Below the pieces are notes generated by a model. It saw only the letters and a program-made list of their open reading frames with translations. It did not search any database and had not been told where the DNA came from. This document shows, in pieces, positions 3,649 through 32,435 of a DNA stretch of 64,000 bases (positions are counted from its first letter, which is position 1; every line of letters begins with the position of its first letter). This DNA comes from Kiloniella litopenaei. GTDB lineage: Bacteria > Pseudomonadota > Alphaproteobacteria > Kiloniellales > Kiloniellaceae. A program made the translations under genes and the position numbers. The DNA lies in NCBI RefSeq assembly GCF_000982415.1, contig NZ_LANI01000005.1, positions 62,001-126,000 on the forward strand. Direction: 5' to 3'.

Positions 3649-3657
3649 TTATCCACA
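3649..3657 (+). promoter_or_regulatory. DnaA-box sequence TTATCCACA
   Basis: Exact match to the strong DnaA box, nine bases after the inverted repeat, in the AT-rich region upstream of the response regulator. A single box away from oriC may act as a DnaA-controlled promoter element or be fortuitous. Confidence 0.4.
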
Positions 3658-15794: not shown

Positions 15795-16727
15795 TTACTC
15801 AGAAGACTGGGTTAACCGATGCAGAACATTATCAAGCTGTTCCAGTGTATCGTATGAAATTTTAAGCGCCCCGCCTTGCCCGTGGAAATCAATACTCACC
15901 TTTAGGCCTAACATATTCGAAAGATCACGCTCCAAGGCAAGAGTATCTGCGTCCTTTTGTGGCCCTGAACTCGGCTTAATCTTTGAGCTAGTGATAGGCT
16001 TTTTTAACTGAGTCTGATCATTTTCAGGTTCTTTCAACTCATTCTTCATCGCTTTGGCCAGGCGTTCTGTCTCGCGAACAGAAAGGCCTTTGGAAGCTAT
16101 TTCCTGAGCCAAATCAACCGCATCATCAGCACCAACAAGCGCGCGAGCATGACCTGCGCTCAAATCACCCTTTTCAACAAGCTCCTGTACTTCTTCCGGC
16201 AAGGATAGCAAACGCAGCATATTTGCAATGTGGCTACGACTTTTCCCAATGATTTTAGCAACATCATCCTGTTTATGGCCAAATTCATCCATCAGGCGTC
16301 GATAACTTGTCGCTTCTTCGATTGGTGTCAGATCCTGACGCTGCACATTTTCAATAATCGCAACCTGGAGAACTTCGGCATCATTCAGCTCTCGAATAAC
16401 AACCGGAATTTCATGTAACTGTGCCCGCTGAGAAGCACGCCAACGGCGCTCTCCTGCAACAATTTCGTATTCTGAAGACAGTTCAGGGTGCCGACGAACC
16501 AAAATTGGCTGTAAAAGCCCGGACTGTTCAATTGAATCGGCAAGTGTCGCGAGGGCCTCTTCTTCAAAGTGACGACGAGGCTGTTTTGTGTTGGGGTGAA
16601 TATGCTCTATTGGAACCTGCTTTGTTGAGCGTACTTTATCCAACGAAGCATAGTCTTCCGTCTCGTCCCCAAAAAGAGCAGCAAGACCGCGGCCTAAATT
16701 TTTCCGTTTATCCTGAGCTTCAGCCAC
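15795..16727 (-). CDS. parB: chromosome partition protein ParB
   Basis: 310 residues from the GTG at 16727 (a TTG one codon upstream is possible). ParB binds parS sites and slides along DNA as a CTP-dependent clamp to form the centromere complex. The N-terminal part has the ParA-contact sequence RKNLGRGLAALFGDE. The CTP-binding domain includes IHPNTKQPRR and GERRWRA. The helix-turn-helix is at DVAKIIGKSRSHIANMLRLL and the C-terminal dimerisation domain follows a Lys/Pro-rich linker. parA lies 60 bp upstream on the same strand, and four parS-like sites lie within 7 kb. Confidence 0.97.
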   Translation of the reverse strand: MAEAQDKRKNLGRGLAALFGDETEDYASLDKVRSTKQVPIEHIHPNTKQPRRHFEEEALATLADSIEQSGLLQPILVRRHPELSSEYEIVAGERRWRASQRAQLHEIPVVIRELNDAEVLQVAIIENVQRQDLTPIEEATSYRRLMDEFGHKQDDVAKIIGKSRSHIANMLRLLSLPEEVQELVEKGDLSAGHARALVGADDAVDLAQEIASKGLSVRETERLAKAMKNELKEPENDQTQLKKPITSSKIKPSSGPQKDADTLALERDLSNMLGLKVSIDFHGQGGALKISYDTLEQLDNVLHRLTQSSE

Positions 16728-16786
16728 CAATCGACCCTCTCAACTAACCCTGTTATCTATTCTATCCGGTGTATGACCGATTAACC

Positions 16787-17623
16787 TTATGCGACAGCTG
16801 GTTCCGTAACACGAACCTGTTCATTTCTGAGGATTTCCCCAGCCAGCTTGATATAGGCCTGAGACCCCGCACAGGCAACATCATATAAAAGAACAGGTTT
16901 GCCATGTGAAGGTGCCTCTGACACCCTGACATTACGCGGAATAACCGTATTAAAAACCTTCTCTCCCAGGAAAGCCCGCACGTCGGCAGCAACCATCTCA
17001 CACAGGTTATTCCTTCTGTCATACATGGTAAGAACAACACCCTGGATTTGAAGGCGACGATTAAGTCCCCTCTTCACGCGATCAATGGTACGTAAGAGGT
17101 GAGAAAGTCCTTCAAGGGCATAGAACTCTGTTTGTAAGGGGACAAGAACCGCATCAGAAGCAACCAGAGCATTCAGGGTTAACAAACCAAGTGCTGGTGG
17201 GCAATCGATCAAGATGTAATCGAATTGATCCAGAAGCGGCCCAATAGCATTCACCAGTTTGAATTCACGCTCTGCTAGCCCCACAAGCTCGAGCTCAGCA
17301 CCCGAAAGTTCCACACCAGATGAAATAACATGCATACGCGGAACATCCGTTGATCTGACAGCTCGCGTTATTGGTAATCCCTCGATCATAACCTGGTAAA
17401 TACTTTGCTGCCGAGCGTCAGGTTCCACACCCAATCCCGTACTGGCATTCCCCTGAGGATCCAGATCAATGATCAGGACCTTCTTTTTGCAAGCCGCAAG
17501 AGCAGTGGCCAGATTTACAGTCGTCGTTGTTTTACCAACGCCACCCTTCTGATTTGCAATGGACCAGACCTTAGCTTCGCGTTTCTTTTTACTTGAAATT
17601 GAATCCATATCTTGTACTGACAT
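16787..17623 (-). CDS. parA: chromosome partition ATPase ParA
   Basis: 278 residues. Deviant Walker A ATPase (NQKGGVGKTTTTVNLATAL), Walker A' and B regions at LIIDLDPQGNASTGLG and YILIDCPPALGLLTLNAL. ParA dimers bind the nucleoid and move ParB-parS complexes, segregating replicated origins. The ATG at 17623 (MSVQDMDS) is preferred to the TTG at 17638, which abuts the rsmG stop. Directly downstream of rsmG and upstream of parB: the standard mnmG-rsmG-parA-parB order beside the origin. Confidence 0.97.
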   Translation of the reverse strand: MSVQDMDSISSKKKREAKVWSIANQKGGVGKTTTTVNLATALAACKKKVLIIDLDPQGNASTGLGVEPDARQQSIYQVMIEGLPITRAVRSTDVPRMHVISSGVELSGAELELVGLAEREFKLVNAIGPLLDQFDYILIDCPPALGLLTLNALVASDAVLVPLQTEFYALEGLSHLLRTIDRVKRGLNRRLQIQGVVLTMYDRRNNLCEMVAADVRAFLGEKVFNTVIPRNVRVSEAPSHGKPVLLYDVACAGSQAYIKLAGEILRNEQVRVTEPAVA

Positions 17624-17639
17624 GATCAATCCCCCCAAA

Positions 17640-18272
17640 TTATAGAAGTTTGAGGTTCAATATTGCTGCATCATCGTCAGACAAAGAATTGTACCTCGAC
17701 ACCTTCATAGTCCACTTTTTCTCTGCTTCGGTCAATTCCTCATCTACATTTCGACCCTTTAAAAGCAAAAATTCCGGATCTTTTTCCACCTTTGAAACCT
17801 CGAGGAAGGCTTGTGAAAAATCTAAAATCTTGGAAAGTGACGCAAATGCACGTGCTGTAAAGACATCCACAGGAAAAGGTTTGATCTTTTCAATACGGTT
17901 ATTATGGACCGTCAAACCTGCATCTGTTTCACGTGAAACTTCCCGCAAGAACATTGATTTTTTGAGATCAGATTCCATTGCATGAACGTCACCTGCCCCC
18001 AATATCGCAAGAATGAGAGCTGGAAAACCAGCACCACTGCCAAAATCAACGATCGTTTTTGTATGATCTGTCTTTGGAAGATATTTAATCAGCTGAGCGG
18101 AATCTAAAAAGTGGCGGGTCCATAGATCCGGTACAGTATTTTTACTCACCAGATTTATTGCTTTGTTCCATTTGACAAGAAGATCAGCATAACACTTTAG
18201 TTTATCCTCTGTTTCACGTGAAACAGGAATGTGCTTTTTAAGAAGATCAATTCCGGTAGTATCAAGCAACAT
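17640..18272 (-). CDS. rsmG: 16S rRNA (guanine-527-N7)-methyltransferase
   Basis: 210 residues. SAM-dependent methyltransferase that makes m7G527 in 16S rRNA; its loss gives low-level streptomycin resistance in other bacteria. The SAM-binding motif [16 protein letters not shown] and the [14 protein letters not shown] region are clear. The N-terminus overlaps the end of mnmG by 11 bp, so the two are translationally linked. Two parS-like sites lie inside this coding sequence (17925-17940 and 18210-18225), both reading through the gene without a stop. Confidence 0.95.
17925..17940. promoter_or_regulatory. parS site (TGTTTCACGTGAAACT)
   Basis: A 14-bp perfect palindrome GTTTCACGTGAAAC at 17926-17939 with one flanking mismatch to the 16-bp parS consensus. 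Inside rsmG, less than 1 kb from parA. Binding site for ParB. Confidence 0.88.
18210..18225. promoter_or_regulatory. parS site, perfect 16-bp palindrome
   Basis: TGTTTCACGTGAAACA, an exact match to the universal bacterial parS consensus, inside the 5' part of rsmG. Likely the strongest ParB loading site of the four. Confidence 0.95.
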
Positions 18273-20130
18273 AATTTTTATCTAATTTTCTGACATATCT
18301 TAAGAGAGCGACCAACGCAGCAGGTGTTACACCCGAAATACGCGATGCAGCTCCCAATGTTTCCGGTTTTGACTGATTGAGTTTTTGAACGATCTCATTG
18401 GACAAACTTGGCACAGATCCATAATCAAAATTATCAGGCAGCTTTAAAGCCTCATCTTTTCGAAAAGCTCTGATATCTGCATCCTGTCGCTCAATATAAC
18501 CGGCATAACTGGCATCAATTTCCAGCTGCTCGACAATGACCTGATCAAACTGCGAAAGCTCTGGCCACACTTTTGTGAGAACTTCTACAGTTACGTCAGG
18601 ATAGCGGAGTAAATCAAAGATTGATCTTCTCTGACCGTCCTTATTTACATTGATATTATAGGCAATCAACTCGTTAGGTGTCGCAGAATGTTCCTTTGCA
18701 AAAGCTCTAGCTTTTGAAAGTTCAGACATCTTTTTCTTAAATACAGAAGCTCTGTCTTCTCTAATACAGCCAATATCAAGCCCGATTGGTGTTAGACGCT
18801 GATCTGCGTTATCTGCGCGAAGTTTTAAACGATACTCTGCCCGGCTGGTAAACATACGGTAAGGCTCAGTAACGCCTAAGCTGACCAAATCGTCAATCAT
18901 GACCCCCATATAGGCATCAGCACGATCCAAAACAAAATCCCGTTCTGATCCTTTAGATTTTAAAGCAGCATTTACCCCAGCAATAAGACCTTGTGCCCCC
19001 GCCTCTTCATATCCTGTCGTTCCATTAATCTGCCCGGCAAAATAAAGGCCCTGAACTTTCAAAGTTTCCAAAGTAGGACGTAGTTCACGGGGGTCCACAT
19101 AGTCATACTCAATCGCATAGCCATGTTGCAGGATCTTTGCCTTCTCAAGTCCCGGGATTGTTTTCAGGAAGTCCTCTTGAACATCTTCGGGAAGAGAGGT
19201 TGAAATGCCATTCGGATAGACATTTACATCGTCCAGCCCTTCTGGTTCCAAAAAGATCTGATGGCGGTCTTTCTCTTTAAACCGCACAACCTTGTCTTCG
19301 ATAGAAGGGCAATAGCGCGGTCCCTTACTTTCAATCTGTCCGGAATACATCGGAGATTGATCTATATTTTCAGCAATAATATCGTGGGTATCAGTATTGG
19401 TATAGGTGATATGACAGGCAACCTGTTCCTGGGTAATTTCCTTTGTCATATAGGAAAAAGGTTCAGGTGGCGTATCCCCCGGCTGAACAACCAGATTGCT
19501 ATAATCTATTGTCCGGGTATCCAGTCGGGCCGGTGTACCCGTTTTCAAACGGCCCAATTCAAACCCAAAACGGGAAAGTGTCCTGGATAACCCGATAGCA
19601 GGTTCATCCCCTACCCGCCCGGCAGGAATTTGTTTTTTCCCAAGATGTATCAAACCGTTTAAAAAGGTTCCTGTTGTCAAAACAACAGCAGATGAAAGGA
19701 TTTTCTCTCCAGAAGCCGTGATCACACCACAACAAATATCATTTTCATCAAGAATAAGATCTTCAACAGGCGCTTCAAGAATTGTCAGGTTTTCCTGATC
19801 ATCCAACAGATCTTGAATGGCTTCTTTATAGAGCTTGCGATCAGCTTGTGCTCTTGGTCCACGAACAGCTGGACCTTTACTTCTGTTTAAAACACGAAAT
19901 TGAATGCCGCCACGGTCAATGGCTTTTCCCATCAAGCCATCAAGAGCATCAATTTCTCTTACCAGATGCCCTTTACCCAAACCGCCAATCGCAGGGTTAC
20001 AAGACATAACCCCGATCGTTGACTTTTTATGGGTTACAAGAAGTGTTGCCGCGCCCATTCTGGCAGCAGCAGCAGCAGCTTCTGTTCCAGCGTGTCCGCC
20101 GCCAACAACAATAACATCATAGTTTTTCAT
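18262..20130 (-). CDS. mnmG: tRNA uridine-5-carboxymethylaminomethyl modification enzyme MnmG (GidA)
   Basis: 622 residues. FAD-dependent partner of MnmE; together they install the (carboxymethyl)aminomethyl group on wobble U34 of certain tRNAs. The Rossmann FAD motif is at the N-terminus ([14 protein letters not shown]), followed by [21 protein letters not shown], the redox-cysteine region, [18 protein letters not shown] and the C-terminal helical MnmE-binding domain with the ending [16 protein letters not shown]. Full length. First gene of the run mnmG-rsmG-parA-parB. Confidence 0.98.
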
Positions 20131-20187
20131 AGCTGATCGCTTTACTGTATTTTAGAATATTAAAAATACTCTGGACAAATTTATAAG

Positions 20188-20376
20188 CTATTTGCCAAGA
20201 GCATCCTTAATCTTCTGATCTGTTTTATATTGGCTCAAAGCATAAACAGACCAGATAGCTGCTACAGGCCAACCAATTAAAGTGATCTGTAGAATAAGAC
20301 AAATGATACCGGCAAAAGGTCTTCCGATTGTAAAAAACTGAAGCCACGGAATTAGCAAAGCCAATAGTAAACGCAT
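20188..20376 (-). CDS. small Pmp3/YqaE-like membrane protein
   Basis: 62 residues from ATG 20376 (an in-frame start nine codons earlier at 20403 is possible). Two hydrophobic segments, LLLALLIPWLQFFTIGRPFAG and the next helix around residues 24-45, end in a short polar tail (YKTDQKIKDALGK). The IPWLQFFTIGRP sequence and layout match a common proteobacterial small protein of the YqaE/Pmp3 class, inner-membrane peptides of unclear function. It lies between mnmE and mnmG on the same strand. A parS-like site lies 115 bp upstream. Confidence 0.75.
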   Translation of the reverse strand: MRLLLALLIPWLQFFTIGRPFAGIICLILQITLIGWPVAAIWSVYALSQYKTDQKIKDALGK

Positions 20377-20490
20377 TCTCTTCCCCTTAAGAAGTCTCTT
20401 CAAACTTTTCTATGAAATAATAATAAGCGAGAATTCATAGATAGATTTGTTCTCAACTTATTTTACAGTCATATTTATATAAACATGATC

Positions 20491-20506
20491 CGTTTCACGT
20501 GAAACA
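20491..20506. promoter_or_regulatory. parS site (CGTTTCACGTGAAACA)
   Basis: The 14-bp perfect palindrome GTTTCACGTGAAAC with one outer mismatch to the 16-bp consensus. It lies in the gap between mnmE and the small membrane-protein gene. Confidence 0.88.
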
Positions 20507-20544
20507 TCTTCACAAAACACTTCACTTATGTAAGCTAACTCAGC

Positions 20545-21900
20545 CTATTTTCCAATGCAAAAATCACGGAAAATAACATCTAACAACTCTTCAACATCCA
20601 CTTTTCCAGTAATCCGTCCAAGATAACGTGTGGCAAGACGAAGATCTTCGGCACAAAGTTCTGGCAGATCAGTTTCGAGTGATCGTCCAAGGGAATCCAG
20701 ACACTCCTGTAAAGCCGATCTGTGACGTTGGCGCGTTATACCAGAAGAGCTACCTGACAGTCCCATATTGGCAACAACCCAGGTGTTCAACTTTTCTAGT
20801 AAAGCATCAATCCCCTCTCCTGTTTTTGTGGAGATTTTAGTGACATCAAAATCTGAAAGAGAAACAGGAGTTATTTCATTATCATCCGTTTTGTCACATT
20901 TATTGATCGCGACAAAAGAGCTGGTAGAACTCAATAGTCTTAAAGTTTCCTGATCAAAGTTGTCACTGTCTTCTATATCAAAAACGGCCAGACATAAATC
21001 AGCAGACTCTGCATGTAATTTCGCACGTCTTATTCCCTCGAGCTCAATGCCGTCTGTCGTGTTTTCTTCTATTTCTCTTAGACCAGCTGTATCAGAAACA
21101 ATAACCGGGTAACCAGACAGATCGAGATGAACTTCAATAATATCCCTTGTTGTCCCTGCTACATCAGAAACAATCGCGACTTCACGTCGTGCCAAAACGT
21201 TCAGAAGTGACGATTTACCCGCGTTAGGGGGACCAACAATTGCTATTTTAATGCCATTACGTAATCGTTCACCACGATGACTATCATCAAGATGATGTCT
21301 AATGTCTTCTCTTAATTCCTCTATCTTGTGTTTAACCTGATCAGAAATTCCCTCTTCCAGCTCTTCATCAGGGAAGTCAATTTCAGCTTCCAGATAAGCC
21401 AGCATTCGAACCAGACGATCTCTCCACCCTTCGACAAGTTTGGAAAGTTCTCCATCCATTTGACGAATGGCCTGCTTCCTTTGCGCTTCGGTTTCGGCAG
21501 CAATAAGATCGGATAGTCCCTCTACTTCTGTTAAATCGAGCTTGTCATTATCAAAAGCACGTCGGGTAAATTCACCAGCTTCAGCCGGACGAAAACCAGG
21601 CAATTTTGCCAAAGCTTCAATGGTACCATCCACAACTGCACGACCACCATGAAGGTGCAGTTCAACAACATCTTCCCCCGTAAAACTGCCAGGACCCGGA
21701 AACCAAAGCGCCAAACACCGATCAAGTTCAGCTTTGTCCTCGGGATCAAAAAGCTTTATGAGTGCTGCAATCCGTGGTTCTGGAAAGGAAGATGACATTT
21801 CCTGCAAAACAAATCTGGCTTTACTGCCAGATATTCTGATCACAGCAACCCCGGCCTGTCCCGGTGCTGTTGATAGGGCAAAAATTGTTTCGGAAGTCAT
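20545..21900 (-). CDS. mnmE: tRNA modification GTPase MnmE (TrmE)
   Basis: 451 residues. GTPase that works with MnmG on wobble uridine. The N-terminal folate-binding domain (TIFALSTAPGQAGVAVIRISG, ELHLHGG) is followed by a helical domain with the inserted G domain: Walker A GPPNAGKSSLLN, DTAGLRE and NKCD. The C-terminal motif CIGK with its conserved cysteine ends the protein. Complete. Leftward, about 170 bp upstream of the small membrane-protein gene. Confidence 0.98.
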   Translation of the reverse strand: MTSETIFALSTAPGQAGVAVIRISGSKARFVLQEMSSSFPEPRIAALIKLFDPEDKAELDRCLALWFPGPGSFTGEDVVELHLHGGRAVVDGTIEALAKLPGFRPAEAGEFTRRAFDNDKLDLTEVEGLSDLIAAETEAQRKQAIRQMDGELSKLVEGWRDRLVRMLAYLEAEIDFPDEELEEGISDQVKHKIEELREDIRHHLDDSHRGERLRNGIKIAIVGPPNAGKSSLLNVLARREVAIVSDVAGTTRDIIEVHLDLSGYPVIVSDTAGLREIEENTTDGIELEGIRRAKLHAESADLCLAVFDIEDSDNFDQETLRLLSSTSSFVAINKCDKTDDNEITPVSLSDFDVTKISTKTGEGIDALLEKLNTWVVANMGLSGSSSGITRQRHRSALQECLDSLGRSLETDLPELCAEDLRLATRYLGRITGKVDVEELLDVIFRDFCIGK

Positions 21901-22080
21901 CTTGTCTAAACCAATACGAGTTTTGTGCGCAATTCACCAGAATTCATATACAGGTGGAATTGCACATTAACCGCAGATAATCAGCGGGTCAAAAGCCTTT
22001 ATTACATAGCAGAACTGCGAAAGTTCATGATCCAGGGAAATTAAACCAACGCCAATTTTCTATTTAGATAATACCCATAA

Positions 22081-22332
22081 TTACTTGGTTGTTTTTGATG
22101 AACTATCTTTGGAAAATTGAGACCAGAACATCTTTTGCATTTGATCAAACCCTTGCATAGAAGCTGGCATCCAGGTTTTCATCAAGGTTTCAGGATCACT
22201 TGATTGAATAGTTTCCATCATTCTTTTTCTGACTTCTTCCATCGCTTCTTTCTGAAGCTCGGAAACGTCGGGAAGCCCTAAAAACTGACGCGCTTCCTCC
22301 GGGGTACAGTCTACATCAAAAGTGATTTTCAT
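22081..22332 (-). CDS. DUF6489 family small protein
   Basis: 83 residues. A highly charged, mostly helical small protein beginning MKITFDVDCTPEEARQFLGLPDV, with a Met- and Glu-rich middle and the conserved-looking DPETLMKTWMPASMQGFDQMQKMFWSQF. This matches a family seen next to mnmE or rho in many alphaproteobacteria; its function is unknown. It resembles small phasin-like or polyhydroxyalkanoate-associated proteins in composition (helical, Gln/Met-rich), but I would not assign that role. A parS-like site lies 86 bp upstream of its start. Confidence 0.8.
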   Translation of the reverse strand: MKITFDVDCTPEEARQFLGLPDVSELQKEAMEEVRKRMMETIQSSDPETLMKTWMPASMQGFDQMQKMFWSQFSKDSSSKTTK

Positions 22333-22417
22333 TGGTATGTCCTGAATTTAAAGCAATTGATAAAAGTTACACTACCTTACTTACAGAAAAAGAATTACAA
22401 ATTTTTATATCTACGTT

Positions 22418-22433
22418 TGTTTCCCGTGAAACA
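22418..22433. promoter_or_regulatory. parS-like site, one internal mismatch
   Basis: TGTTTCCCGTGAAACA: one base off the perfect 16-bp palindrome. In the short gap between the PAP2 phosphatase gene and the DUF6489 gene. Probably a weaker ParB site. Confidence 0.7.
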
Positions 22434-24976: not shown

Positions 24977-25006
24977 CCCTTGAGAAACTAATAAATTGGT
25001 TCTCAA

Positions 25007-26263
25007 TTACTGATTCATAGAATCAAAGAATTCGTCATTATTTTTGGATGATTTCAGTTTATCAACCAGGAACTCAACAGAATCTGTCACACCCATCGGT
25101 GTAAGAATACGGCGGAGTACCCACATTTTACTCAATGTTGCTTTGTCGACCAGCAACTCTTCCTTACGTGTACCGGATTTGCTGATATCAATCGCAGGAT
25201 AGGTACGTTTATCAGAAAGTTTACGGTCCAGAACAATTTCAGAGTTACCAGTACCTTTAAATTCTTCGAAGATCACTTCGTCCATACGGCTACCGGTATC
25301 GATAAGAGCCGTAGAGATGATCGTCAGGCTACCGCCCTCTTCAATGTTACGTGCAGCACCAAAGAAGCGTTTAGGACGCTGTAGCGCGTTTGCATCGACA
25401 CCACCGGTCAAAACTTTACCAGAGCTTGGAACAACAGTGTTATAAGCGCGAGCTAGACGCGTGATGGAATCAAGAAGGATAACAACGTCTTTTTTGTGTT
25501 CAACCAGACGCTTTGCCTTTTCCAAAACCATTTCAGTTACCTGAACATGGCGATGAGCTGGCTCATCAAAGGTAGAGCTAACAACTTCACCTTTCACGGA
25601 ACGTGCCATGTCTGTGACCTCTTCCGGACGTTCATCAATCAGAAGAACAATCAGGAAAACTTCGGGATGATTTGCCACAATCGACTGCGCAATATTCTGC
25701 ATCAAGACTGTTTTACCGGTTCTTGGCGGCGCTACGATCAATGCTCGCTGACCTTTACCAAGTGGAGTCACAAGGTCGATCACGCGGGTTGTCATGTCTT
25801 TTTTTGTTGGATCATCAAGCTCAAGCTTGAGTTTTTCATCCGGATAAAGCGGTGTCAGGTTGTCAAAATTAATTCTGTGACGCGAAGATTCCGGTTGATC
25901 AAAATTTATCTGATTAACTTTTAACAAAGCAAAATATCGTTCACCATCTTTGGGCGCACGAATTTGTCCTTCGACAGTATCACCTGTTCTTAACCCAAAA
26001 CGCCTTACCTGACTTGGGCTGACATAGATATCATCAGGCCCTGGCAGATAGTTTGATTCCGGCGCTCGGAGAAAACCAAATCCATCTTGTAAAATTTCCA
26101 AAACGCCTGAGCCAAAAATAGGCACATCGTTCTCAGCCATTTGTTTGAGGATGGCGAACATCATGTCCTGCTTTCGCAGGGTGCTGGCGTTCTCTACTTC
26201 AAGTTCCTCTGCAAGCTTAAGAAGCTCTGCGGGACTTTTTACTTTGAGATCTTGTAAGTTCAT
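25007..26263 (-). CDS. rho: transcription termination factor Rho
   Basis: 418 residues, the compact form without a long insertion. Hexameric RNA helicase that ends untranslated transcripts. N-terminal RNA-binding domain with GFLRAP...[20 protein letters not shown]. The ATPase Walker A is [11 protein letters not shown] (Arg where many have Lys-Ala), followed by [27 protein letters not shown] and the Q-loop [23 protein letters not shown] at 26263. A 241-bp leader separates it from hemJ upstream on the same strand; Rho genes are often autoregulated there. Confidence 0.98.
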
Positions 26264-26504
26264 ATGATGGAAAAGTTTGGTTCAGTTAAGAATGAACGAG
26301 ATGATAAGGATGCAACAAACAAGTTAAGATTTATAAAAGGCTTCGTCTTTTATTACGACGATCCTCAAAGACCTGATATCCTGTTGCAATGTAAATCGGA
26401 GTAACGGGCTGTTGAAGTTGGCCCACGTTTGCTAGCGGGGTGAATTATAGTACCTCAAAAAGGAAGTCAAGTAAAAGAATTCTCGCGTGGACTAAATTTT
26501 AGAC

Positions 26505-26948
26505 TCAAAATGGCTTCACAACTGCAAAAATAACGATAGCAATCATTAAAATTGTCGGAATTTCATTGGCATAGCGATAAAAACGTTCGCTTCGTGTGTT
26601 TTTGTCCACTTGGAAAGCTTTCATCCACTTTCCTGCGATTTCATGAAAAACAGTCAAAGCAATCAAAAGCGTAAGTTTGCCATGAAACCAGCCATCGCTA
26701 TAGGCTTCGATGTTTAAAACCAAAAGAATACCAAAAAGCCAGCTGGCCATCATTGCCGGGTTCATTATGAAGCGAAAGAGTTTTCGCTCCATAACTTTAA
26801 AAATCTCTGACCGTTCAGAACCAACAGGAACTTGGGTATGATAAACAAAAATGCGCGGAAGATAGAGCAAACCTGCCATCCATGAGATAACAGAAATAAT
26901 ATGCAGAGCTTTTATCCAGAGATAGCCCTCACCCAAAAATCCACCCAT
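26505..26948 (-). CDS. hemJ: protoporphyrinogen IX oxidase HemJ
   Basis: 147 residues with four predicted transmembrane helices. HemJ is the haem-binding membrane protein that oxidises protoporphyrinogen IX in bacteria lacking HemG and HemY. The conserved H16 in LWIKALHIISVISWMAGLLYLPRIFVYH and the helix pairs RFIMNPAMMASWLFGILL and KLTLLIALTVFHEIAGKWM are typical. It follows hemE by 22 bp in the same direction, so the two haem genes form an operon, and their rho linkage is common in alphaproteobacteria. Confidence 0.94.
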   Translation of the reverse strand: MGGFLGEGYLWIKALHIISVISWMAGLLYLPRIFVYHTQVPVGSERSEIFKVMERKLFRFIMNPAMMASWLFGILLVLNIEAYSDGWFHGKLTLLIALTVFHEIAGKWMKAFQVDKNTRSERFYRYANEIPTILMIAIVIFAVVKPF

Positions 26949-26970
26949 TTGTCAGAAATTCCCGTTTAAT

Positions 26971-28002
26971 TCAGCTCCTGACGAGCTTTAGCATTTTTTC
27001 AACATTCTCAATTGGCGTTTGCGGCACAATGCCATGACCCAGATTGAAAATAAAGGGACCACCACTGAGATCGTTCATAATGGTTTCAATGGATTTTTCC
27101 AATATGTCACCACCAGCTACCAACACGAGCGGATCCAAATTACCCTGGACAGTGACGTGAGATTGGATGTTATCTCTGGCCCAGGAAGTTGACAAAGTCG
27201 TATCCAGACCCAAGGCATCAGCTCCGCTTTCCTTAGCAAAAACTGGATAGCTGTCCCCTACTCCCCTTGGAAAGAGAATAACGGGGACGTTTGGATAAAC
27301 TGATTTGATTCCGGCTATAATCTGTTTACAGGGTTCCAAACACCAACGGCGTAAAGCAAATTCAGGCCATACACCTGCCCAGGAATCAAAAATTTGTACT
27401 GTTTCTGCACCGCTTTCAATTTGTTTGATCAGGTATCTGGTTGTTGCCTCAACCACCAGATTAATAATTTGATCAAACTCTTCAGGTTTTGAATAGGCCC
27501 AAGTTTTGGCTTTGGCATAATCTTTGGAAGATCCGCCTTCTATCATGTAACTGGCAACTGTCCATGGAGCCCCGGCAAAGCCGATTAATGTTGTTTCTTT
27601 TGGAAGTTCTTCTTTCAAGCGACCAAGTGTTTCATACATGGGCGCGAGATGTTCATGAAGATTATCCATATTGAGTTTTGATAGATCTTCTATGGAATTA
27701 AGCGCTTCCAGCTTTGGGCCTACACCTTCTTCAAACCATACCTTTTGACCAAGTGCATGGGGAATGACCAGAATATCACTAAACATTATTGAAGCATCGA
27801 ACCCAAATCTGCGAATGGGTTGAAGGGTAACTTCTACAGCGAGATCCGGTGTGTAACAAAGGTCGAGGAAGCCGTTCGCAGATGCTCTTGTTTTTCTGTA
27901 TTCGGGTAAAAAACGCCCTGCTTGTCTCATAAGCCAGATCGGTGTGCGTTCTGTTTTTTCGCCTTTTAGGGCGCGTATCATGAGTTTGTCTTCGGTTTGC
28001 AC
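26971..28002 (-). CDS. hemE: uroporphyrinogen decarboxylase
   Basis: 343 residues. Converts uroporphyrinogen III to coproporphyrinogen III in haem synthesis. Signature TPIWLMRQAGRFLPEYR near the N-terminus and GFAGAPWTVASYMIEGG in the middle; the substrate-binding FDSWAGVWP and the late FNLGHGIVPQTP are present. Start taken as GTG 28002; an ATG at 27981 (MIRALKGEK) is also possible. hemE flanks the chromosomal origin in Caulobacter, Rickettsia and many other alphaproteobacteria, and here the gap upstream of it has the marks of oriC. Confidence 0.96.
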   Translation of the reverse strand: MQTEDKLMIRALKGEKTERTPIWLMRQAGRFLPEYRKTRASANGFLDLCYTPDLAVEVTLQPIRRFGFDASIMFSDILVIPHALGQKVWFEEGVGPKLEALNSIEDLSKLNMDNLHEHLAPMYETLGRLKEELPKETTLIGFAGAPWTVASYMIEGGSSKDYAKAKTWAYSKPEEFDQIINLVVEATTRYLIKQIESGAETVQIFDSWAGVWPEFALRRWCLEPCKQIIAGIKSVYPNVPVILFPRGVGDSYPVFAKESGADALGLDTTLSTSWARDNIQSHVTVQGNLDPLVLVAGGDILEKSIETIMNDLSGGPFIFNLGHGIVPQTPIENVEKMLKLVRS

Positions 28003-28086
28003 GATTTCTTTGAACCTCGCGTTAAGAGTTATCTCTATTAATATACTATGTAATAGTAATTATTTGTTGTTGTTGTAGATCCCTGT

Positions 28087-28280
28087 GAATCACGAGGATT
28101 AGTCAGTTATTCATAACTTGTCCTCAAGCTTCAAGTCTTCAATTTAAATTTTTTGTGATTTCTGATTCTTCTGTGAGTTTCACTGTGAATTGAAAATGGG
28201 GACTCGTTAACGAATCTCGGAGTCCTATTTTTTCCTTAATAACCTTAATTATGGGGATAACTTTTTTACATTCCGGAGTC
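28087..28280. promoter_or_regulatory. cluster of six GANTC (CcrM) sites in oriC
   Basis: GANTC occurs at 28087, 28164, 28201, 28212, 28220 and 28276. Random expectation is about one per 256 bp. GANTC is methylated by CcrM in most alphaproteobacteria, and its methylation state marks newly replicated DNA. Confidence 0.75.
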
Positions 28281-28290
28281 CTTTTACAAG

Positions 28291-28299
28291 TTTTGCACA
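28291..28299 (+). promoter_or_regulatory. DnaA box TTTTGCACA
   Basis: Fits the TTWTNCACA consensus. Three bases later a near-consensus box on the other strand (28302-28310, reads ATATTCACA) makes a closely spaced pair. Confidence 0.65.
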
Positions 28300-28373
28300 G
28301 ATGTGAATATTGCAGCGAATTGTCGCATAAGGTGAGGGAATGACCGGGGGACAGCGTGTGTAGAAAAAGGTCA

Positions 28374-28401
28374 TGTGGACAAATAGCTATAGTTATCCAC
28401 A
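28374..28401. promoter_or_regulatory. inverted pair of DnaA boxes
   Basis: Left arm 28374-28382 (TTGTCCACA on the minus strand, one mismatch) and right arm 28393-28401 (TTATCCACA, perfect), facing each other across ten bases that contain the palindrome ATAGCTAT. Overall 20 of 28 positions are symmetric. Probable core DnaA-binding element of oriC. Confidence 0.75.
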
Positions 28402-28687
28402 AAGTTTTACGCACTACCCCCAACTTTGTTCACATTTGAGAGCATGGTCTGAATAGTCGTGTTATCTGAAGAATAAGTTATTGTTTTTCCTTGGCTTGAC
28501 CTTTGTTCTGGTGTTTTAAAAAGGGTAACTATTCCCCAACAAAAACGATCTATTCCTTGAAGAAAATATGAAAATAGATTGCTTTCCTGCTCAGACAGGT
28601 TTCGTGCTTTGCACTTAATGTGTATGAATGAAGCACAATAAATGTGCCATGAAGCCGAGAGGCAGGGCCAAAAGTTCGGAAGTAGAT

Positions 28688-29509
28688 ATGTCACAAACCC
28701 ATTTACATCTTGTTTCAGATTCCACAGGTGAAACGATTAATTCCGTCGCCCGCGCTTGTATGGTGCAGTTCAAAGTGGAAGAACCTATTGAACATGTCTG
28801 GAGCTTGATCCGAACCAAGGTTCAAATGGAAAAGGTCTTACTTCAGATCCGGCAAAAACCTGGACCTGTTCTCTTTACAGTTGTTAATCAAGAGCTTAGA
28901 GAAATTTTAATCCGTGAATGTCGGCGTTTGGGATTACCCTCTATTCCTGTTCTTGATCCGGTTATTCATGCACTCGCCAGTTATTTCAATCTGGAAATGT
29001 CGGGTAAACCCGGTCTGCAGCACACGCTGGATTCAGAATATTTCAATCGCATAGAAGCGATGAATTTTGCATTAAACCACGATGACGGACAACTTCCCCA
29101 AAACCTGAATGACGCCGAGATTGTATTGCTGGGGGTTTCCAGAACATCAAAAACACCGACCTGTATCTATCTGGCTAACCGGGGATATAAGGCAGCGAAT
29201 GTTCCGATTGTGCCGGGATGTCCCTTACCAAAAGAGCTGGAAACTCTTAGTAATCCTCTGGTTGTTGGTCTGACGAAAGACCCTGCAAGCCTGATGCAGA
29301 TCCGCCGTAGCCGCTTGAAAATGATCTCGAATGAAGAAGAAACAGACTATGTTCATCTGGAATCCATCAAGGAAGAGGTGAAGATGGCGCGGAAGTTTTG
29401 TAACGAGCATCGCTGGCCAATTATTGATGTAACCCGCCGCTCTATAGAAGAAACGGCAGCAACTATTATCAAACACTATCATCGTCATATGGGTATTGCC
29501 GATGAATAG
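28688..29509 (+). CDS. DUF299 pyruvate phosphate dikinase / PEP synthase regulatory protein
   Basis: 273 residues from ATG 28688 (MSQTHLHLVSDSTGET), preceded by GGAAG; upstream in-frame codons to 28628 are probably not used. Bifunctional kinase and phosphorylase that controls pyruvate phosphate dikinase or PEP synthase by reversible phosphorylation. Signature LVSDSTGETI at the N-terminus and the P-loop-like GVSRTSKTPTCIYLANRG. Which of the two targets it controls cannot be told from sequence. It is the first rightward gene from the origin, homologous in place to RP001. Its end overlaps maf by 8 bp. Confidence 0.93.
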   Translation: MSQTHLHLVSDSTGETINSVARACMVQFKVEEPIEHVWSLIRTKVQMEKVLLQIRQKPGPVLFTVVNQELREILIRECRRLGLPSIPVLDPVIHALASYFNLEMSGKPGLQHTLDSEYFNRIEAMNFALNHDDGQLPQNLNDAEIVLLGVSRTSKTPTCIYLANRGYKAANVPIVPGCPLPKELETLSNPLVVGLTKDPASLMQIRRSRLKMISNEEETDYVHLESIKEEVKMARKFCNEHRWPIIDVTRRSIEETAATIIKHYHRHMGIADE

Positions 29510-30131
29510 GGTTATAGAGCAGGAAAAACTGGACCAAACCCCTGTTATTCTGGCTTCAGCAAGCAAAGCACGTGGATTTCTTTTAAAGAATGCGGGCGTT
29601 CCGCTTGCTGATTTGTTACCTGCCGCGATTGATGAGGACGAGGTCAAACAGTCCTTAAAATCCGAAGGTGCAACAGCTATACAAGTAGCAGAAACTCTCG
29701 CAGAGCTTAAGGCCCGCAAAATTTCCATGACAAATCCCAATTCTTTTGTCATTGGCGCAGACCAGATGCTGAACTGTAATGGGATCTGGTTTGATAAGCC
29801 AACCGATCTGGATCATGCCGCGGCTCATTTGAAGGCCCTGTCCGGGAAAACACATCAGTTGGAATGCGCAGTCTGCGTGGTAAAAAATGGCGAGAGGCTT
29901 TGGCACCATAATGAAACGGCCTCTTTGACCATGCGTCCTTTGGATGATGAGTTTATTGCCGCCTATCTGAATAAATTGGGTGATGAGGCGCTTTCCTCTG
30001 TCGGGGCCTATCAACTGGAGGGGCTTGGCGCACAGCTTTTCCACAGGATTCAGGGGGATTATTTTACAATCCTGGGGCTTCCCCTTCTCCCTCTTCTCAC
30101 GTTTTTACGACATAACAGGATTTTGGCTTAG
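29502..30131 (+). CDS. maf: Maf-like nucleotide pyrophosphatase
   Basis: 209 residues from ATG 29502, which overlaps the end of the DUF299 gene; a TTG at 29496 is less likely. Maf proteins hydrolyse non-canonical or modified NTPs (dTTP/UTP or m7GTP, pseudo-UTP) and can slow division. N-terminal PVILASASKARGFLLKNAGVP carries the conserved SxxR loop. VIGADQMLNC is the catalytic aspartate region, and LDHAAAHLKALSGKTHQLECAV follows. It ends with GDYFTILGLPLLPLLTFLR, as in this family. It directly abuts aroE. Confidence 0.93.
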   Translation: MNRVIEQEKLDQTPVILASASKARGFLLKNAGVPLADLLPAAIDEDEVKQSLKSEGATAIQVAETLAELKARKISMTNPNSFVIGADQMLNCNGIWFDKPTDLDHAAAHLKALSGKTHQLECAVCVVKNGERLWHHNETASLTMRPLDDEFIAAYLNKLGDEALSSVGAYQLEGLGAQLFHRIQGDYFTILGLPLLPLLTFLRHNRILA

Positions 30132-30992
30132 ATGATTCTTTCAGGGAAAGCCCGCTTGGCCGGGGTTATTGGTTGGCCTGTGTCCCATTCAAAATCCCCG
30201 CGCCTACATGGTTACTGGCTTGAAAATATGGGCATAGACGGGACCTATTTACCCCTTGCCATTGAACCCGAAAACTTTGAAGCGGCTGTGCGCGGCCTCA
30301 TGCATTCAGGCTTTGGCGGTGTCAATGTTACTGTTCCGCACAAGGAAGCTGCGTTGGCTTTTTGTGATGAAGTTGATCCGCTTGCGAAACGAATTGGGGC
30401 TGTGAATACCATTGTTTTTAAAAACGGGCGTTCTTATGGCTCTAACACTGATGCATTCGGGTTTATTGAAAATTTGAAACAAGGTGCTGAAAAGCTTGAT
30501 TTTTCCCTTGGTTTCTCTGGATTAAAAACGGTTGTTTTAGGGGCTGGTGGTGCATCCCGCGGGGTGATTGTGGCTTTGCAAGATGCTGGTGTTCAAAACA
30601 TTATCCTGGTGAACCGGACAAGAGAACGTGCTGAAGTTCTTGCGGCTGATTTATCGTCAGGTGCTGATGGCATGATTACAGTTGCCGATTGGGATGATCG
30701 TAATAATGTGCTTAATGGCTGTGATTTACTGGTAAACACGACAAGTCTTGGTATGGCAGGTCAGCCACCTTTGGAATTATCACTGGATAAATTACCAAAA
30801 TCCTGTGTGGTGACGGATATTGTCTATGCGCCTTTGGTTACACCTCTTCTTGCTTTGGCCAAGGAAAGAGGAAACAAAATTGTGGATGGTCTGGGGATGC
30901 TATTGCATCAGGCAAGACCCGGATTTGAAGCATGGTTTGGTGAAAAACCAGAGGTAACAGAGGATTTACGCAAATTTGTTCTGGAAAGTTAA
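30132..30992 (+). CDS. aroE: shikimate dehydrogenase
   Basis: 286 residues, starting at the base after the maf stop. NADPH-dependent reduction of 3-dehydroshikimate to shikimate in aromatic amino-acid synthesis. Substrate site GWPVSHSKSPRLHGYWL and GGVNVTVPHKEAAL with the catalytic lysine; GAVNTIV and NTDAFGF; Rossmann motif VLGAGGASRGV and LVNRTRERAEVLA; C-terminal DGLGMLLHQARPGFEAWFG. Complete. Part of the rightward run DUF299-maf-aroE-coaE-dnaQ. Confidence 0.97.
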   Translation: MILSGKARLAGVIGWPVSHSKSPRLHGYWLENMGIDGTYLPLAIEPENFEAAVRGLMHSGFGGVNVTVPHKEAALAFCDEVDPLAKRIGAVNTIVFKNGRSYGSNTDAFGFIENLKQGAEKLDFSLGFSGLKTVVLGAGGASRGVIVALQDAGVQNIILVNRTRERAEVLAADLSSGADGMITVADWDDRNNVLNGCDLLVNTTSLGMAGQPPLELSLDKLPKSCVVTDIVYAPLVTPLLALAKERGNKIVDGLGMLLHQARPGFEAWFGEKPEVTEDLRKFVLES

Positions 30993-31041
30993 TTCCAGAT
31001 TTTTGCACAGGTTTTAGTGTATCAGGAGCGGGTTGTTTTAA

Positions 31042-31698
31042 ATGCATGTTCTTGGGCTTACGGGTTCAATTGGAATGGGAAAATCGACCGCTGCCAGGAT
31101 GTTTCAGCGGTTGAAAGTTCCTGTGCACGATGCTGATGCGGTTGTCCATCAACTGATGGGTAAGAATGGGGCCGCCGTTAAAGATATTTCTGCCCTTTTT
31201 CCTGAAACAAAGACAAACAACGGCATTGACCGCAAAAAGCTGGGGGATGCTGTTTTTAGACAACCGGAAAAATTAAAACAGCTCGAGGCAATTTTACATC
31301 CCCTCGTTCGACAAAAGATGCACCGTTTTATCGACCGCTATGCCCGACAAAGAAGAGAACTGGTTGTCTTGGATATCCCGCTTTTGTTTGAAACAGGCGG
31401 AGACAGGTTTTGCGACAGTGTTCTTGTTATTTCTTGTCCCAAATATATACAGGATCAACGGGTGTTATCGCGCAAGGGAATGACGGCGGAAAAATATCAG
31501 GGAATACTGAAAAAACAGATGCCTGATATGGAAAAAAGGGCGCGGGCTGACTTTGTTATCAGATCAAATCAGGGACGAAGATATTCTTTTCAACAGGTAC
31601 AACAGATTGTTGAAAAGCTGGGATCAAGTGATAAAAGTGCTCATGGCACAAAAGACAGAAAGTTTTGTCCTCATCTGTCGCTGATCTACAAACAATAG
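31042..31698 (+). CDS. coaE: dephospho-CoA kinase
   Basis: 218 residues. Last step of coenzyme A synthesis: phosphorylates the 3'-OH of dephospho-CoA. P-loop LTGSIGMGKSTAARMF, substrate motif VHDADAVVHQL, LDIPLLFETGGD, and the lid region around RVLSRKGMTAEKYQGILKKQ. The last 20 residues extend a little past the usual end. 49 bp after aroE, 38 bp before dnaQ; same transcription unit very likely. Confidence 0.96.
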   Translation: MHVLGLTGSIGMGKSTAARMFQRLKVPVHDADAVVHQLMGKNGAAVKDISALFPETKTNNGIDRKKLGDAVFRQPEKLKQLEAILHPLVRQKMHRFIDRYARQRRELVVLDIPLLFETGGDRFCDSVLVISCPKYIQDQRVLSRKGMTAEKYQGILKKQMPDMEKRARADFVIRSNQGRRYSFQQVQQIVEKLGSSDKSAHGTKDRKFCPHLSLIYKQ

Positions 31699-31736
31699 TA
31701 TTATGCAAACAGTAATCTGGGATTTAGATAGTCAAC

Positions 31737-32435
31737 ATGCGTGAAATTATTCTGGATACAGAAACCACCGGTTTTAAACCTGAAGAAGGTCACCGTATTG
31801 TCGAGATCGGGTGTCTGGAAGTTTATCAAAATTTGCCAACCGGGAAGTCATTACAGCTCTATATAAACCCGGAACGTGACATGCCTGAAGGGGCTTTCAA
31901 AGTTCACGGTATTAGCGAAGAGTTTCTGGCCGATAAACCTGTTTTTGTTGATGTTGTTGATGAGTTTCTGGAATTTATCGGCGAAGATCCTCTGGTGATT
32001 CATAACGCGCCGTTTGACATGAAGTTCCTCAACTCGGAACTTAAATGGGCGGGTCGACCAAATCTGAAGAACAAACCTATTGATACTGTGGTGATCGCCA
32101 GAGAACTTTTCCCGGGATCACCGGTTAATCTGGATGCTTTATGCCGTCGATTTGAAATTGATAATTCGTCGCGTACCTACCACGGTGCTCTGCTGGATTG
32201 TGAACTTCTTGCAGAGGTATATCTGGAACTTCGGGGCGGTCGTCAACATGGCTTTGATCTCGGTGCAAAAAAAGCAGCTTCTTCTGCAAACAGCAGTGGC
32301 CAGAGACAAGACTTAAGCCGTACCAAAACGGGCAAGAAAGTGCGCGAAGCAAGACCTCATGTTATTCCAGAAGAAGAACTTGCTGCCCATAGTGCGATGC
32401 TTGAACTCCTAAGCGACCCTATTTGGAAAAAATAG
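31737..32435 (+). CDS. dnaQ: DNA polymerase III epsilon subunit (3'-5' exonuclease)
   Basis: 232 residues. Proofreading exonuclease of the replicative polymerase. Exo I motif with the two acidic residues in ILDTETTGF, Exo II HNAPFDMKFLN, Exo III YHGALLDCELLAEVYL. The C-terminal tail after about residue 180 is polar and holds the region that binds the polymerase alpha subunit. Ends the rightward run from the origin; the next gene, secB, is convergent with a shared terminator. Confidence 0.96.
   Translation: MREIILDTETTGFKPEEGHRIVEIGCLEVYQNLPTGKSLQLYINPERDMPEGAFKVHGISEEFLADKPVFVDVVDEFLEFIGEDPLVIHNAPFDMKFLNSELKWAGRPNLKNKPIDTVVIARELFPGSPVNLDALCRRFEIDNSSRTYHGALLDCELLAEVYLELRGGRQHGFDLGAKKAASSANSSGQRQDLSRTKTGKKVREARPHVIPEEELAAHSAMLELLSDPIWKK

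What the first reader, a model, noticed from the sequence alone, without database searches (positions are those of the whole stretch)
28003..28687. Chromosomal origin between hemE and DUF299 gene
Seen: 685 bp without a real gene, one perfect and one consensus DnaA box plus at least six one-mismatch boxes on both strands, AT-rich blocks, divergent flanking genes. Known: Caulobacter and Rickettsia origins lie between hemE and the RP001/DUF299 gene. Inference: this is oriC and the window spans the replication start.
Basis: partly seen in the sequence, partly recalled or inferred. Interest (0 to 1): 0.7.

Follow-up and report, generated by a model that had tools for sequence, protein, structure and literature searches.

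The report
Replication origin with altered DnaA-trio
This is the place where a marine bacterium (Kiloniella) starts copying its chromosome; the place itself was expected, but next to the initiator's binding site it carries a three-letter repeat that differs from the textbook version, and the same altered repeat recurs in many related bacteria.

Summary
The region is the chromosomal origin of a Kiloniella genome. Cumulative GC skew over its 332-kb contig is lowest at window 27809. In a congener sampled skew flips here, not at dnaA. parAB and four parS sites lie 5.6-12 kb away. DnaA boxes with up to two mismatches peak here. The conserved origin is 28003-28433.

Unexpected: at 28064-28092 five triplets (TTG TTG TTG TTG TAG), a 5-bp gap and a DnaA box, the layout of a 'basal unwinding system'. 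But the triplet is 3'-GNT-5', not the published 3'-GAT-5'. Across 18 genera of the order the middle base is A in only 20 of 90 triplets. GNT runs of 3+ near the box occur in 16 of 18 genera, published NAN runs in 1 of 18. Outside the order, 13 of 72 genera have runs of 4+ against 0.46 expected. DnaA residue Asn187, which reads the middle adenine in Bacillus, is aromatic in 87 of 91 alphaproteobacterial genomes read. Function is inferred, not shown.

The parts
26971..28002 (-). hemE (uroporphyrinogen decarboxylase), left flanking gene, divergent
   Evidence: PF01208, 1.6e-120; next to DUF299 in 38 of 41 order genomes and, within the stretch fetched, 82 of 89 class genomes
28003..28433 (.). Origin core (oriC)
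   Evidence: Conserved in 8 of 8 Kiloniella genomes aligned. Stays beside hemE in G005/L035, where a GGDEF gene separates it from DUF299. GC-skew minimum 194 bp away; contig maximum of DnaA boxes with up to 2 mismatches
28030..28063 (.). AT-rich stretch beside the triplets, proposed duplex-unwinding element (borders are my choice)
   Evidence: 74% AT in 28041-28090; in 41 of 43 genera with a triplet run the 50 nt on this side are more AT-rich than the whole intergenic region. Melting not tested
28064..28078 (+). Five TNG triplets (TTG TTG TTG TTG TAG) = 3'-GNT-5' array, proposed single-strand DnaA binding element
   Evidence: Over 18 genera of the order: G 83/90, T 75/90, middle T55 A20 G14 C1. 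GNT run >=3 within 16 nt of the box in 16 of 18. Runs of >=4 in 19 of 90 genera against 0.4 expected on the + strand, 0 on the - strand
28079..28083 (+). 5-bp gap ATCCC between triplets and box
   Evidence: ATCCC or ATGCC also in several relatives; the gap is not of one length in all
28084..28092 (-). Trio-proximal DnaA box TGATTCACA, two mismatches; holds GANTC site 28087-28091
   Evidence: Aligns with perfect TGTGGATAA in other class members; GANTC kept in 8 of 8 Kiloniella. T->G change resembles Caulobacter G-boxes (passage of PMC4468827; that it is position 2 there is recalled)
28093..28101 (-). Second G+C-rich, box-like block (CGAGGATTA on +; order consensus CGGGGATTA)
   Evidence: Columns 28094 and 28098 invariant in 18 genera
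28201..28280 (.). Four more conserved GANTC sites (28201, 28212, 28220, 28276)
   Evidence: Kept in 8 of 8 Kiloniella; the 250-bp window at 28051 holds 6 GANTC, the densest in the 332-kb contig
28252..28260 (-). DnaA box TTATCCCCA (one mismatch)
   Evidence: TTATCCCC kept in 8 of 8 Kiloniella, last base varies
28374..28382 (-). DnaA box TTGTCCACA (one mismatch)
   Evidence: varies between species
28393..28401 (+). Perfect DnaA box TTATCCACA
   Evidence: identical in 8 of 8 Kiloniella
28434..28687 (.). Variable DUF299-side segment, probably promoter and leader of DUF299, not origin core
   Evidence: Poorly conserved with large indels; in L035 a GGDEF gene lies between the core and DUF299
28688..29509 (+). 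DUF299 / COG1806 gene (PF03618), right flanking gene
15795..17638 (-). parB (15795-16730) and parA (16787-17638)
   Evidence: ParB and ParA-type Pfam matches
17925..22433 (+). Four parS sites (17925, 18210, 20491, 22418)
   Evidence: 4 matches found with <=3 mismatches allowed, each with 0 or 1; 0.29 expected, 0 of 100 shuffles reach 4; consensus recalled

Best explanation
28003-28433 is the origin of the Kiloniella chromosome. DnaA binds the boxes on duplex DNA. From the trio-proximal box (28084-28092, - strand), with the neighbouring box-like block behind it, a DnaA-ATP filament extends towards hemE, melts the AT-rich stretch and holds the + strand through the array at 28064-28078, one protomer per triplet. 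This is the layout of the basal unwinding system (BUS), but the triplet is 3'-GNT-5' (N rarely C), not the published 3'-GAT-5' with conserved middle adenine. I propose that alphaproteobacterial DnaA has relaxed or changed how it reads the middle base, because the residue that contacts that adenine in B. subtilis (Asn187) is Tyr here and aromatic in almost all alphaproteobacterial genomes read. Position and conservation of the origin and of the array are shown by calls. Binding, melting, strand capture and the role of the tyrosine are inferred.
For: Origin: skew minimum at 27809; flip at hemE and not dnaA in EL199; parS/parAB; DnaA-box maximum. Array: G and T of each triplet conserved, middle base free over 18 genera; GNT >=3 next to the box in 16 of 18 against a shuffle rate of 0.007, NAN >=3 in 1 of 18 against 0.26. 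The TNG pattern was noted from the order alignment (note) before the class regions were fetched; in the 72 genera outside the order 13 have >=4 triplets against 0.46 expected and 27 have >=3 against 5.9. Of 90 genera, 19 have runs of >=4 on the + strand and 0 on the - strand; for runs of >=3 it is 43 against 9.0 expected on + and 3 against 5.0 on -. AT-rich on the far side in 41 of 43. Four triplets plus box occur once in the 332-kb contig. In 24 upstream-of-dnaA regions of other Pseudomonadota no run of >=4 is seen (0.3 expected). DnaA: Asn187 equivalent is Y78 F7 H2 N2 T1 V1 of 91 alphaproteobacterial genomes, Glu183 and Glu228 kept in 91 of 91; one per genus, aromatic in 65 of 69; none of 28 other Pseudomonadota is aromatic there. 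Orientation and a G+C-rich 5-mer gap match B. subtilis as described in PMC10316083 (passages).
Against: No experiment. In B. subtilis, T or G at the middle position impairs strand separation and growth (PMC10721633 passages). The residue is almost invariant in the class, so co-variation with the middle base cannot be tested inside it; the four non-aromatic genomes show no clear trend by eye. The 28 other Pseudomonadota read also lack Asn187 (A, Q, T, S), so its loss is not special to this array. Exact runs of >=3 triplets are found in 43 of 90 genera only, and a rigid template passed the 99% shuffle level in 35 of 90 on the + strand and 5 of 90 on the - strand. A box with <=2 mismatches lies within 15 nt of the run in 23 of 43 (shuffle rate 0.03), with gaps of 4-5 nt in 7 and 12-14 nt in 11, so the gap is not fixed. 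Kiloniella's trio-proximal box is two mismatches from consensus. The control for other Pseudomonadota uses upstream-of-dnaA regions, which need not be their origins.
Confidence: 0.75

Rival explanations
1. An ordinary Cori-type origin with a canonical DnaA-trio elsewhere in the region; the TNG array is incidental.
For: NAN runs of >=4 occur somewhere on the + strand in 63 of 90 intergenic regions, and GTAATAGTAATT at 28050-28061 holds TAG/TAA trinucleotides.
Against: Shuffles give 57.8 for the same count, so that pattern, sought anywhere in the region, has no power here. Within 16 nt of the conserved box NAN >=3 is found in 1 of 18 genera, while the GNT array is conserved and one-stranded.
Confidence: 0.1
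2. E. coli-type recruitment: DnaA bound to the duplex boxes captures TTGT motifs of the opened T-rich strand, without a filament growing from the adjacent box.
For: The array TTGTTGTTGTTGTAG contains TTGT four times, and E. coli DnaA uses TTGT/TTATT (PMC10316083 passages).
Against: In relatives the array is mixed TAG, TGG and TTG, which breaks TTGT but keeps T and G every third base; the array is near a co-oriented box.
Confidence: 0.15
3. The array is an unstructured CAA-repeat leader or a promoter element of hemE, conserved for expression rather than replication.
For: It lies 61 nt upstream of the hemE start and reads (CAA)n on the hemE mRNA strand.
Against: Its distance to the hemE start ranges from 30 to 253 nt in 42 of 43 genera (585 in one, probably not the element). 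A G-rich block lies within 45 nt on the other side in 28 of 43 (random positions 0.20) and a DnaA box with <=2 mismatches within 15 nt in 23 of 43 (shuffles 0.03). Relatives have CTA and CCA units, not only CAA.
Confidence: 0.07

Closest known systems
Caulobacter crescentus Cori and other hemE/COG1806 alphaproteobacterial origins (Rickettsia)
   Same: Same flanking genes, AT-rich part, weak DnaA boxes including a T->G variant box, GANTC motifs, parS nearby (PMC1914354, PMC4468827, PMC3973325, passages)
   Different: No TTAA-N7-TTAA CtrA site found in the intergenic region (only one TTAA-N5-TTAA at 28236). A triplet array is not mentioned in the passages seen
Basal unwinding system (BUS) with DnaA-trio, Bacillus subtilis
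   Same: Box, short gap, triplet array, AT-rich DNA, in the same relative orientation; G at the first and T at the third base of the trio (passages)
   Different: Middle base is T (61%), A (22%), G (16%) or C (1%) over 18 genera instead of conserved A; DnaA has Tyr217 for Asn187 and Lys232 for Arg202
Thermotoga maritima eTrio (three TAG)
   Same: Tandem TNG trinucleotides on one strand bound by DnaA (passages)
   Different: TAG only, with a different DnaA box; DnaA has Asn at the position of Asn187
E. coli oriC DUE motifs TTGT/TTATT
   Same: TTGT is contained in the Kiloniella array
   Different: The passages seen describe separate TTGT and TTATT motifs in the DUE, not a tandem triplet array beside a box (PMC10316083)

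Membership tests
hemE/COG1806 (Cori-type) alphaproteobacterial oriC | Intergenic region between divergent hemE and COG1806/DUF299 | tested here: met
   38 of 41 order genomes, 82 of 89 class genomes
hemE/COG1806 (Cori-type) alphaproteobacterial oriC | GC-skew switch at the site | tested here: met
   minimum at 27809 over the 332-kb contig; EL199; relative G025 undecided
hemE/COG1806 (Cori-type) alphaproteobacterial oriC | Cluster of DnaA boxes and AT-rich region | tested here: met
   11 boxes with <=2 mismatches in 430 bp, contig maximum; 74% AT block
hemE/COG1806 (Cori-type) alphaproteobacterial oriC | CtrA sites TTAA-N7-TTAA (Caulobacter; PMC4468827 says not seen in other origins except possibly Rickettsia) | tested here: not met
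   exact pattern absent in 28003-28687; by that passage a trait of the Caulobacter lineage, so not used to reject membership
hemE/COG1806 (Cori-type) alphaproteobacterial oriC | IHF site | not tested
   not searched
hemE/COG1806 (Cori-type) alphaproteobacterial oriC | Autonomous replication, marker-frequency peak | not testable with these tools
   needs bench work or reads
BUS with DnaA-trio | DnaA box co-oriented and adjacent to the array | tested here: met
   box 28084-28092 (-, two mismatches), gap 5 bp, array 28064-28078
BUS with DnaA-trio | At least three trios with middle adenine (published search pattern NAN, PMC8287927) | tested here: not met
   Kiloniella: longest NAN run 1 within 16 nt of the box; 1 of 18 genera reach 3
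BUS with DnaA-trio | DnaA pocket residues Asn187, Arg202, Glu228 (B. subtilis numbering) | tested here: not met
   Tyr, Lys, Glu in Kiloniella; Glu kept, Lys conservative, Tyr not. PMC10721633 notes that none of these residues is universally conserved
BUS with DnaA-trio | DnaA-dependent strand separation on the cognate origin | not testable with these tools
   needs protein
E. coli TTGT/TTATT recruitment | TTGT or TTATT motifs on the bound strand | tested here: inconclusive
   TTGT present in Kiloniella; not conserved as such in relatives

The most novel reading that the evidence does not exclude
Alphaproteobacteria use a different single-strand code at the origin: DnaA with an aromatic residue at position 187 reads 3'-GNT-5' triplets through the outer G and T, so that the canonical GAT trio is one case of a wider TNG code that also covers the E. 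coli TTGT motif. In Kiloniella a CcrM site inside the trio-proximal box would further tie filament nucleation to methylation state.
Probability: 0.4. Interest if true: 0.75.

Novelty: new variant of a known kind. Interest (0 to 1): 0.58.

Why it matters
The 2021 BUS survey found no DnaA-trio in 15% of genomes and suspected 'deviant' trios without the middle adenine (PMC8287927, passages). The 2023 structure paper raised the possibility that DnaA homologs read a range of sequences (PMC10721633, passages). The conserved GNT array, in a class whose DnaA has changed at the adenine-reading residue, is a concrete natural candidate with a defined partner protein, and can be tested with short oligonucleotides and one point change in DnaA. 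It also warns that NAN runs sought anywhere in these regions are hardly commoner than in shuffles; I did not run the published program itself.

Tried and rejected
A CtrA-regulated origin: no TTAA-N7-TTAA in the region; not supported for this origin. An origin at dnaA: no skew flip there in EL199, and no perfect DnaA box in the 3.5-kb dnaA locus; rejected. RNA element: no Rfam match at E<=1 in 25000-32000. Rigid template for the module: too stiff, because relatives have one-base shifts; replaced by run counting. A first Kiloniella alignment included two unturned loci and the rearranged G005; superseded. The first control on other Pseudomonadota (27 regions) wrongly took in loci at contig starts; redone, where four of 28 were set aside (three at contig starts, one short) and 24 used. 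G025 skew: too weak to use. Methylation: GANTC is enriched in the intergenic regions (61 against 35.6 in 18 genera of the order, 196 against 136.8 in 72 outside), but GANTC motifs in Cori are already described (PMC3973325, passage), so not claimed as new.

Limits: class genomes without a DUF299 match (44 of 143) were not examined. Of the 98 other matching genomes, 89 were taken and 9 left out to save calls; hemE was not found in the fetched stretch in 7 of 89. For the counts one genome per genus was kept (18 genera of the order, 72 outside); of 82 class regions, 8 same-genus ones were dropped and 2 belong to the order set. The 91 DnaA (90 picked genomes plus the window's own) were not thinned; one search gives one per genus. 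Of 80 non-alphaproteobacterial genomes, DnaA of 28 was read, the best-scoring ones. Shuffles were first-order Markov resamplings (plain shuffles). The genera are not independent by descent.

Literature: searches. 'Alphaproteobacteria' plus 'DnaA-trio' gave one paper (PMC5043019), which I did not open; of the 16 papers with 'Caulobacter' plus 'DnaA-trio' I saw passages of two (PMC10225481, PMC10316083), and of the 25 passages of five. No paper was read whole. The 2016 Nature paper on the trio is not held. Absence from print is therefore only weakly supported.

Full report
WHAT IS THERE. The window lies in a Kiloniella genome: 4.31 Mb in 85 contigs, window = contig C45 62001-126000, with eight same-genus relatives; records matched include K. 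spongiae, K. majae and K. laminariae by title. Between hemE (26971-28002, -) and the DUF299/COG1806 gene (28688-29509, +; PF03618) are 685 bp. Left of hemE follow hemJ (UPF0093 in Pfam), rho and, further on, mnmE, mnmG, rsmG, parA and parB; right of DUF299 follow maf, aroE and coaE (hemJ, mnmE, mnmG and rsmG are names given by me, not by a call).

In 28003-28687 there is one perfect DnaA box (28393, +) and two with one mismatch (28252 -, 28374 -); nine more need two mismatches. 'At least six one-mismatch boxes' is wrong. The cluster is real: 11 sites with up to two mismatches in 430 bp against a contig mean of 1.69, the highest value of the 332-kb contig.

IT IS THE ORIGIN. The cumulative GC skew of the complete contig has its minimum at window 27809. 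In Kiloniella EL199 (G001) contig C3 carries dnaA at 61 kb and DUF299 at 315 kb. Ten of ten sampled 20-kb stretches up to 308 kb are negative and ten of ten from 320 kb positive, so the switch is at hemE and not at dnaA. The one-contig genome G036 switches at its DUF299 gene too; G025 is undecided (20 stretches each). Four parS sites, each with 0 or 1 mismatch, lie at 17925-22433 (0.29 expected with up to 3 mismatches). The hemE-COG1806 pair was already known to frame the origins of Caulobacter and Rickettsia (PMC1914354, passages).

EXTENT. Eight Kiloniella genomes align closely over 28003-28433 and poorly beyond. In a ninth (G005, L035) a GGDEF gene sits between the conserved part and DUF299, leaving the conserved part beside hemE. 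The origin core is therefore taken as the hemE-side 430 bp.

THE TRIPLET ARRAY. Alignment of 38 intergenic regions of the order (41 genomes; G005, G026 and G037 left out for the insertion or contig ends) shows one block conserved throughout: triplets, a short gap, then TGTGAATC.CGGGGATTA. In Kiloniella it reads TTG TTG TTG TTG TAG (28064-28078), ATCCC, TGTGAATCA, CGAGGATTA. In other class members the box segment is often TGTGGATAA, that is TTATCCACA on the - strand, which identifies the weak Kiloniella box TGATTCACA by homology. Its T->G change resembles that of Caulobacter G-boxes (PMC4468827, passage; the position within the box is recalled). Over 18 genera of the order, the third base of the five triplets is G in 83 of 90, the first T in 75 of 90, and the middle T in 55, A in 20, G in 14, C in 1. 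Read 3'->5' away from the box this is GNT.

IS IT MORE THAN CHANCE. On 90 intergenic regions, one per genus, runs of >=4 TNG occur in 19 on the + strand (0.4 expected) and 0 on the - strand; runs of >=4 NAN, sought anywhere, occur in 63 on + (57.8 expected) and 68 on - (61.7 expected). The TNG pattern was written down from the order alignment (note) before class regions were fetched, so the 72 genera outside the order are the fair test: 13 have runs of >=4, 0.46 expected; 27 have runs of >=3, 5.9 expected. Over all 90, runs of >=3: 43 on + (9.0 expected), middle bases T68 A51 G43 C2, and 3 on - (5.0 expected). Next to the box, within the published 16-nt limit, GNT >=3 is found in 16 of 18 genera (shuffle rate 0.007) and NAN >=3 in 1 of 18 (0.26). 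In 41 of 43 genera the 50 nt on the hemE side are more AT-rich than the whole region. In the window's own contig the combination of four triplets and box occurs once. In 24 upstream-of-dnaA regions of other Pseudomonadota no run of >=4 is seen, and runs of >=3 are near chance (on + 3, 4.0 expected; on - 6, 3.2 expected) (which replaces the faulty); their origins need not lie there, so this is a weak control.

HOW IT MOST LIKELY WORKS. In B. subtilis, DnaA on boxes #6/#7 seeds a filament that captures one 3'-GAT-5' triplet per protomer; G is held by Arg202 and Glu228, A by Asn187 and Glu183, T is not captured in the pocket (PMC10721633, passages). The orientation and a G+C-rich 5-mer between boxes and triplets (PMC10316083, passage) match what is seen here. 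The Kiloniella DnaA (L212:973-2403, on another contig, C15) aligns without gaps in this stretch: Asn187 is Tyr217, Arg202 is Lys232, Glu183 and Glu228 are kept. In 91 alphaproteobacterial genomes the position is Y78 F7 H2 N2 T1 V1, one per genus Y56 F7 H2 N2 T1 V1 of 69; in 28 other Pseudomonadota A15 Q9 T3 S1; T. maritima has Asn and A. aeolicus Gln. Lys for Arg202 is common to both groups. Inference: the G pocket is kept while the middle-base pocket has changed, so the array is held through G and spacing, and the middle base may be T, A or G. This would reverse the B. subtilis preference, where C replaces A well but T and G do not. No binding or unwinding was shown here.

AGAINST THIS READING. 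The residue hardly varies in the class, so linked change with the middle base is untestable there. The other Pseudomonadota read lack Asn187 as well. Fewer than half of the 90 genera have an exact run of >=3, a rigid template passes in 35 of 90 (5 of 90 on the other strand), and the gap to the nearest good box is not of one length. Genera are related by descent, so the counts are not independent events.

METHYLATION. Six GANTC sites lie in 250 bp from 28051, the densest place of the contig; five are kept in 8 of 8 Kiloniella, one of them (28087) inside the trio-proximal box. The genome has a RAMA-domain protein; of 14 control genomes that family rings in Caulobacter only, which suggests a CcrM-type enzyme. 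GANTC motifs in Caulobacter origins are known (PMC3973325, passage), so only the overlap with the box may be a new point, and its effect is unknown.

VERDICT. The origin call is right and of a known kind. The array is a variant of the DnaA-trio that fails two tests of the published element (middle adenine; Asn187) while keeping its architecture: it most likely works like a BUS but should not be filed as a canonical one. In the listings and passages seen I met no description of it in alphaproteobacteria; few of the listed papers were opened.

Noticed in passing
L035:1367-3082 (-): In G005 (Rhodospirillales bacterium 47_12_T64) a 571-aa GGDEF protein gene lies between the origin core and DUF299, a natural boundary mark for the origin.
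   Followed up: partly
window 28087-28091: A GANTC (CcrM) site lies inside the trio-proximal DnaA box and is kept in 8 of 8 Kiloniella although the box letters vary; TGTGANTC occurs in 18 of 38 regions of the order, Kiloniella included.
   Followed up: partly
50 nt hemE-side of the array in class relatives: AGAATC (with a GANTC site) recurs in the AT-rich stretch: 12 of 43 genera against 1.0 expected; any GANTC 22 of 43 against 6.3. Kiloniella itself has no GANTC there.
   Followed up: partly
G163, G047, G173 and G158 contigs: Four contigs begin within about 0.7 kb of dnaA although DUF299 is elsewhere on the same contig, so 'position 1' is not the hemE/DUF299 origin in these sequences.
   Followed up: no
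window 28317-28330: GAATTGTCGCATAA is identical in 8 of 8 Kiloniella genomes and has no function known to me.
   Followed up: no
window 3649-3657: A second perfect DnaA box (+) far from the origin.
   Followed up: no
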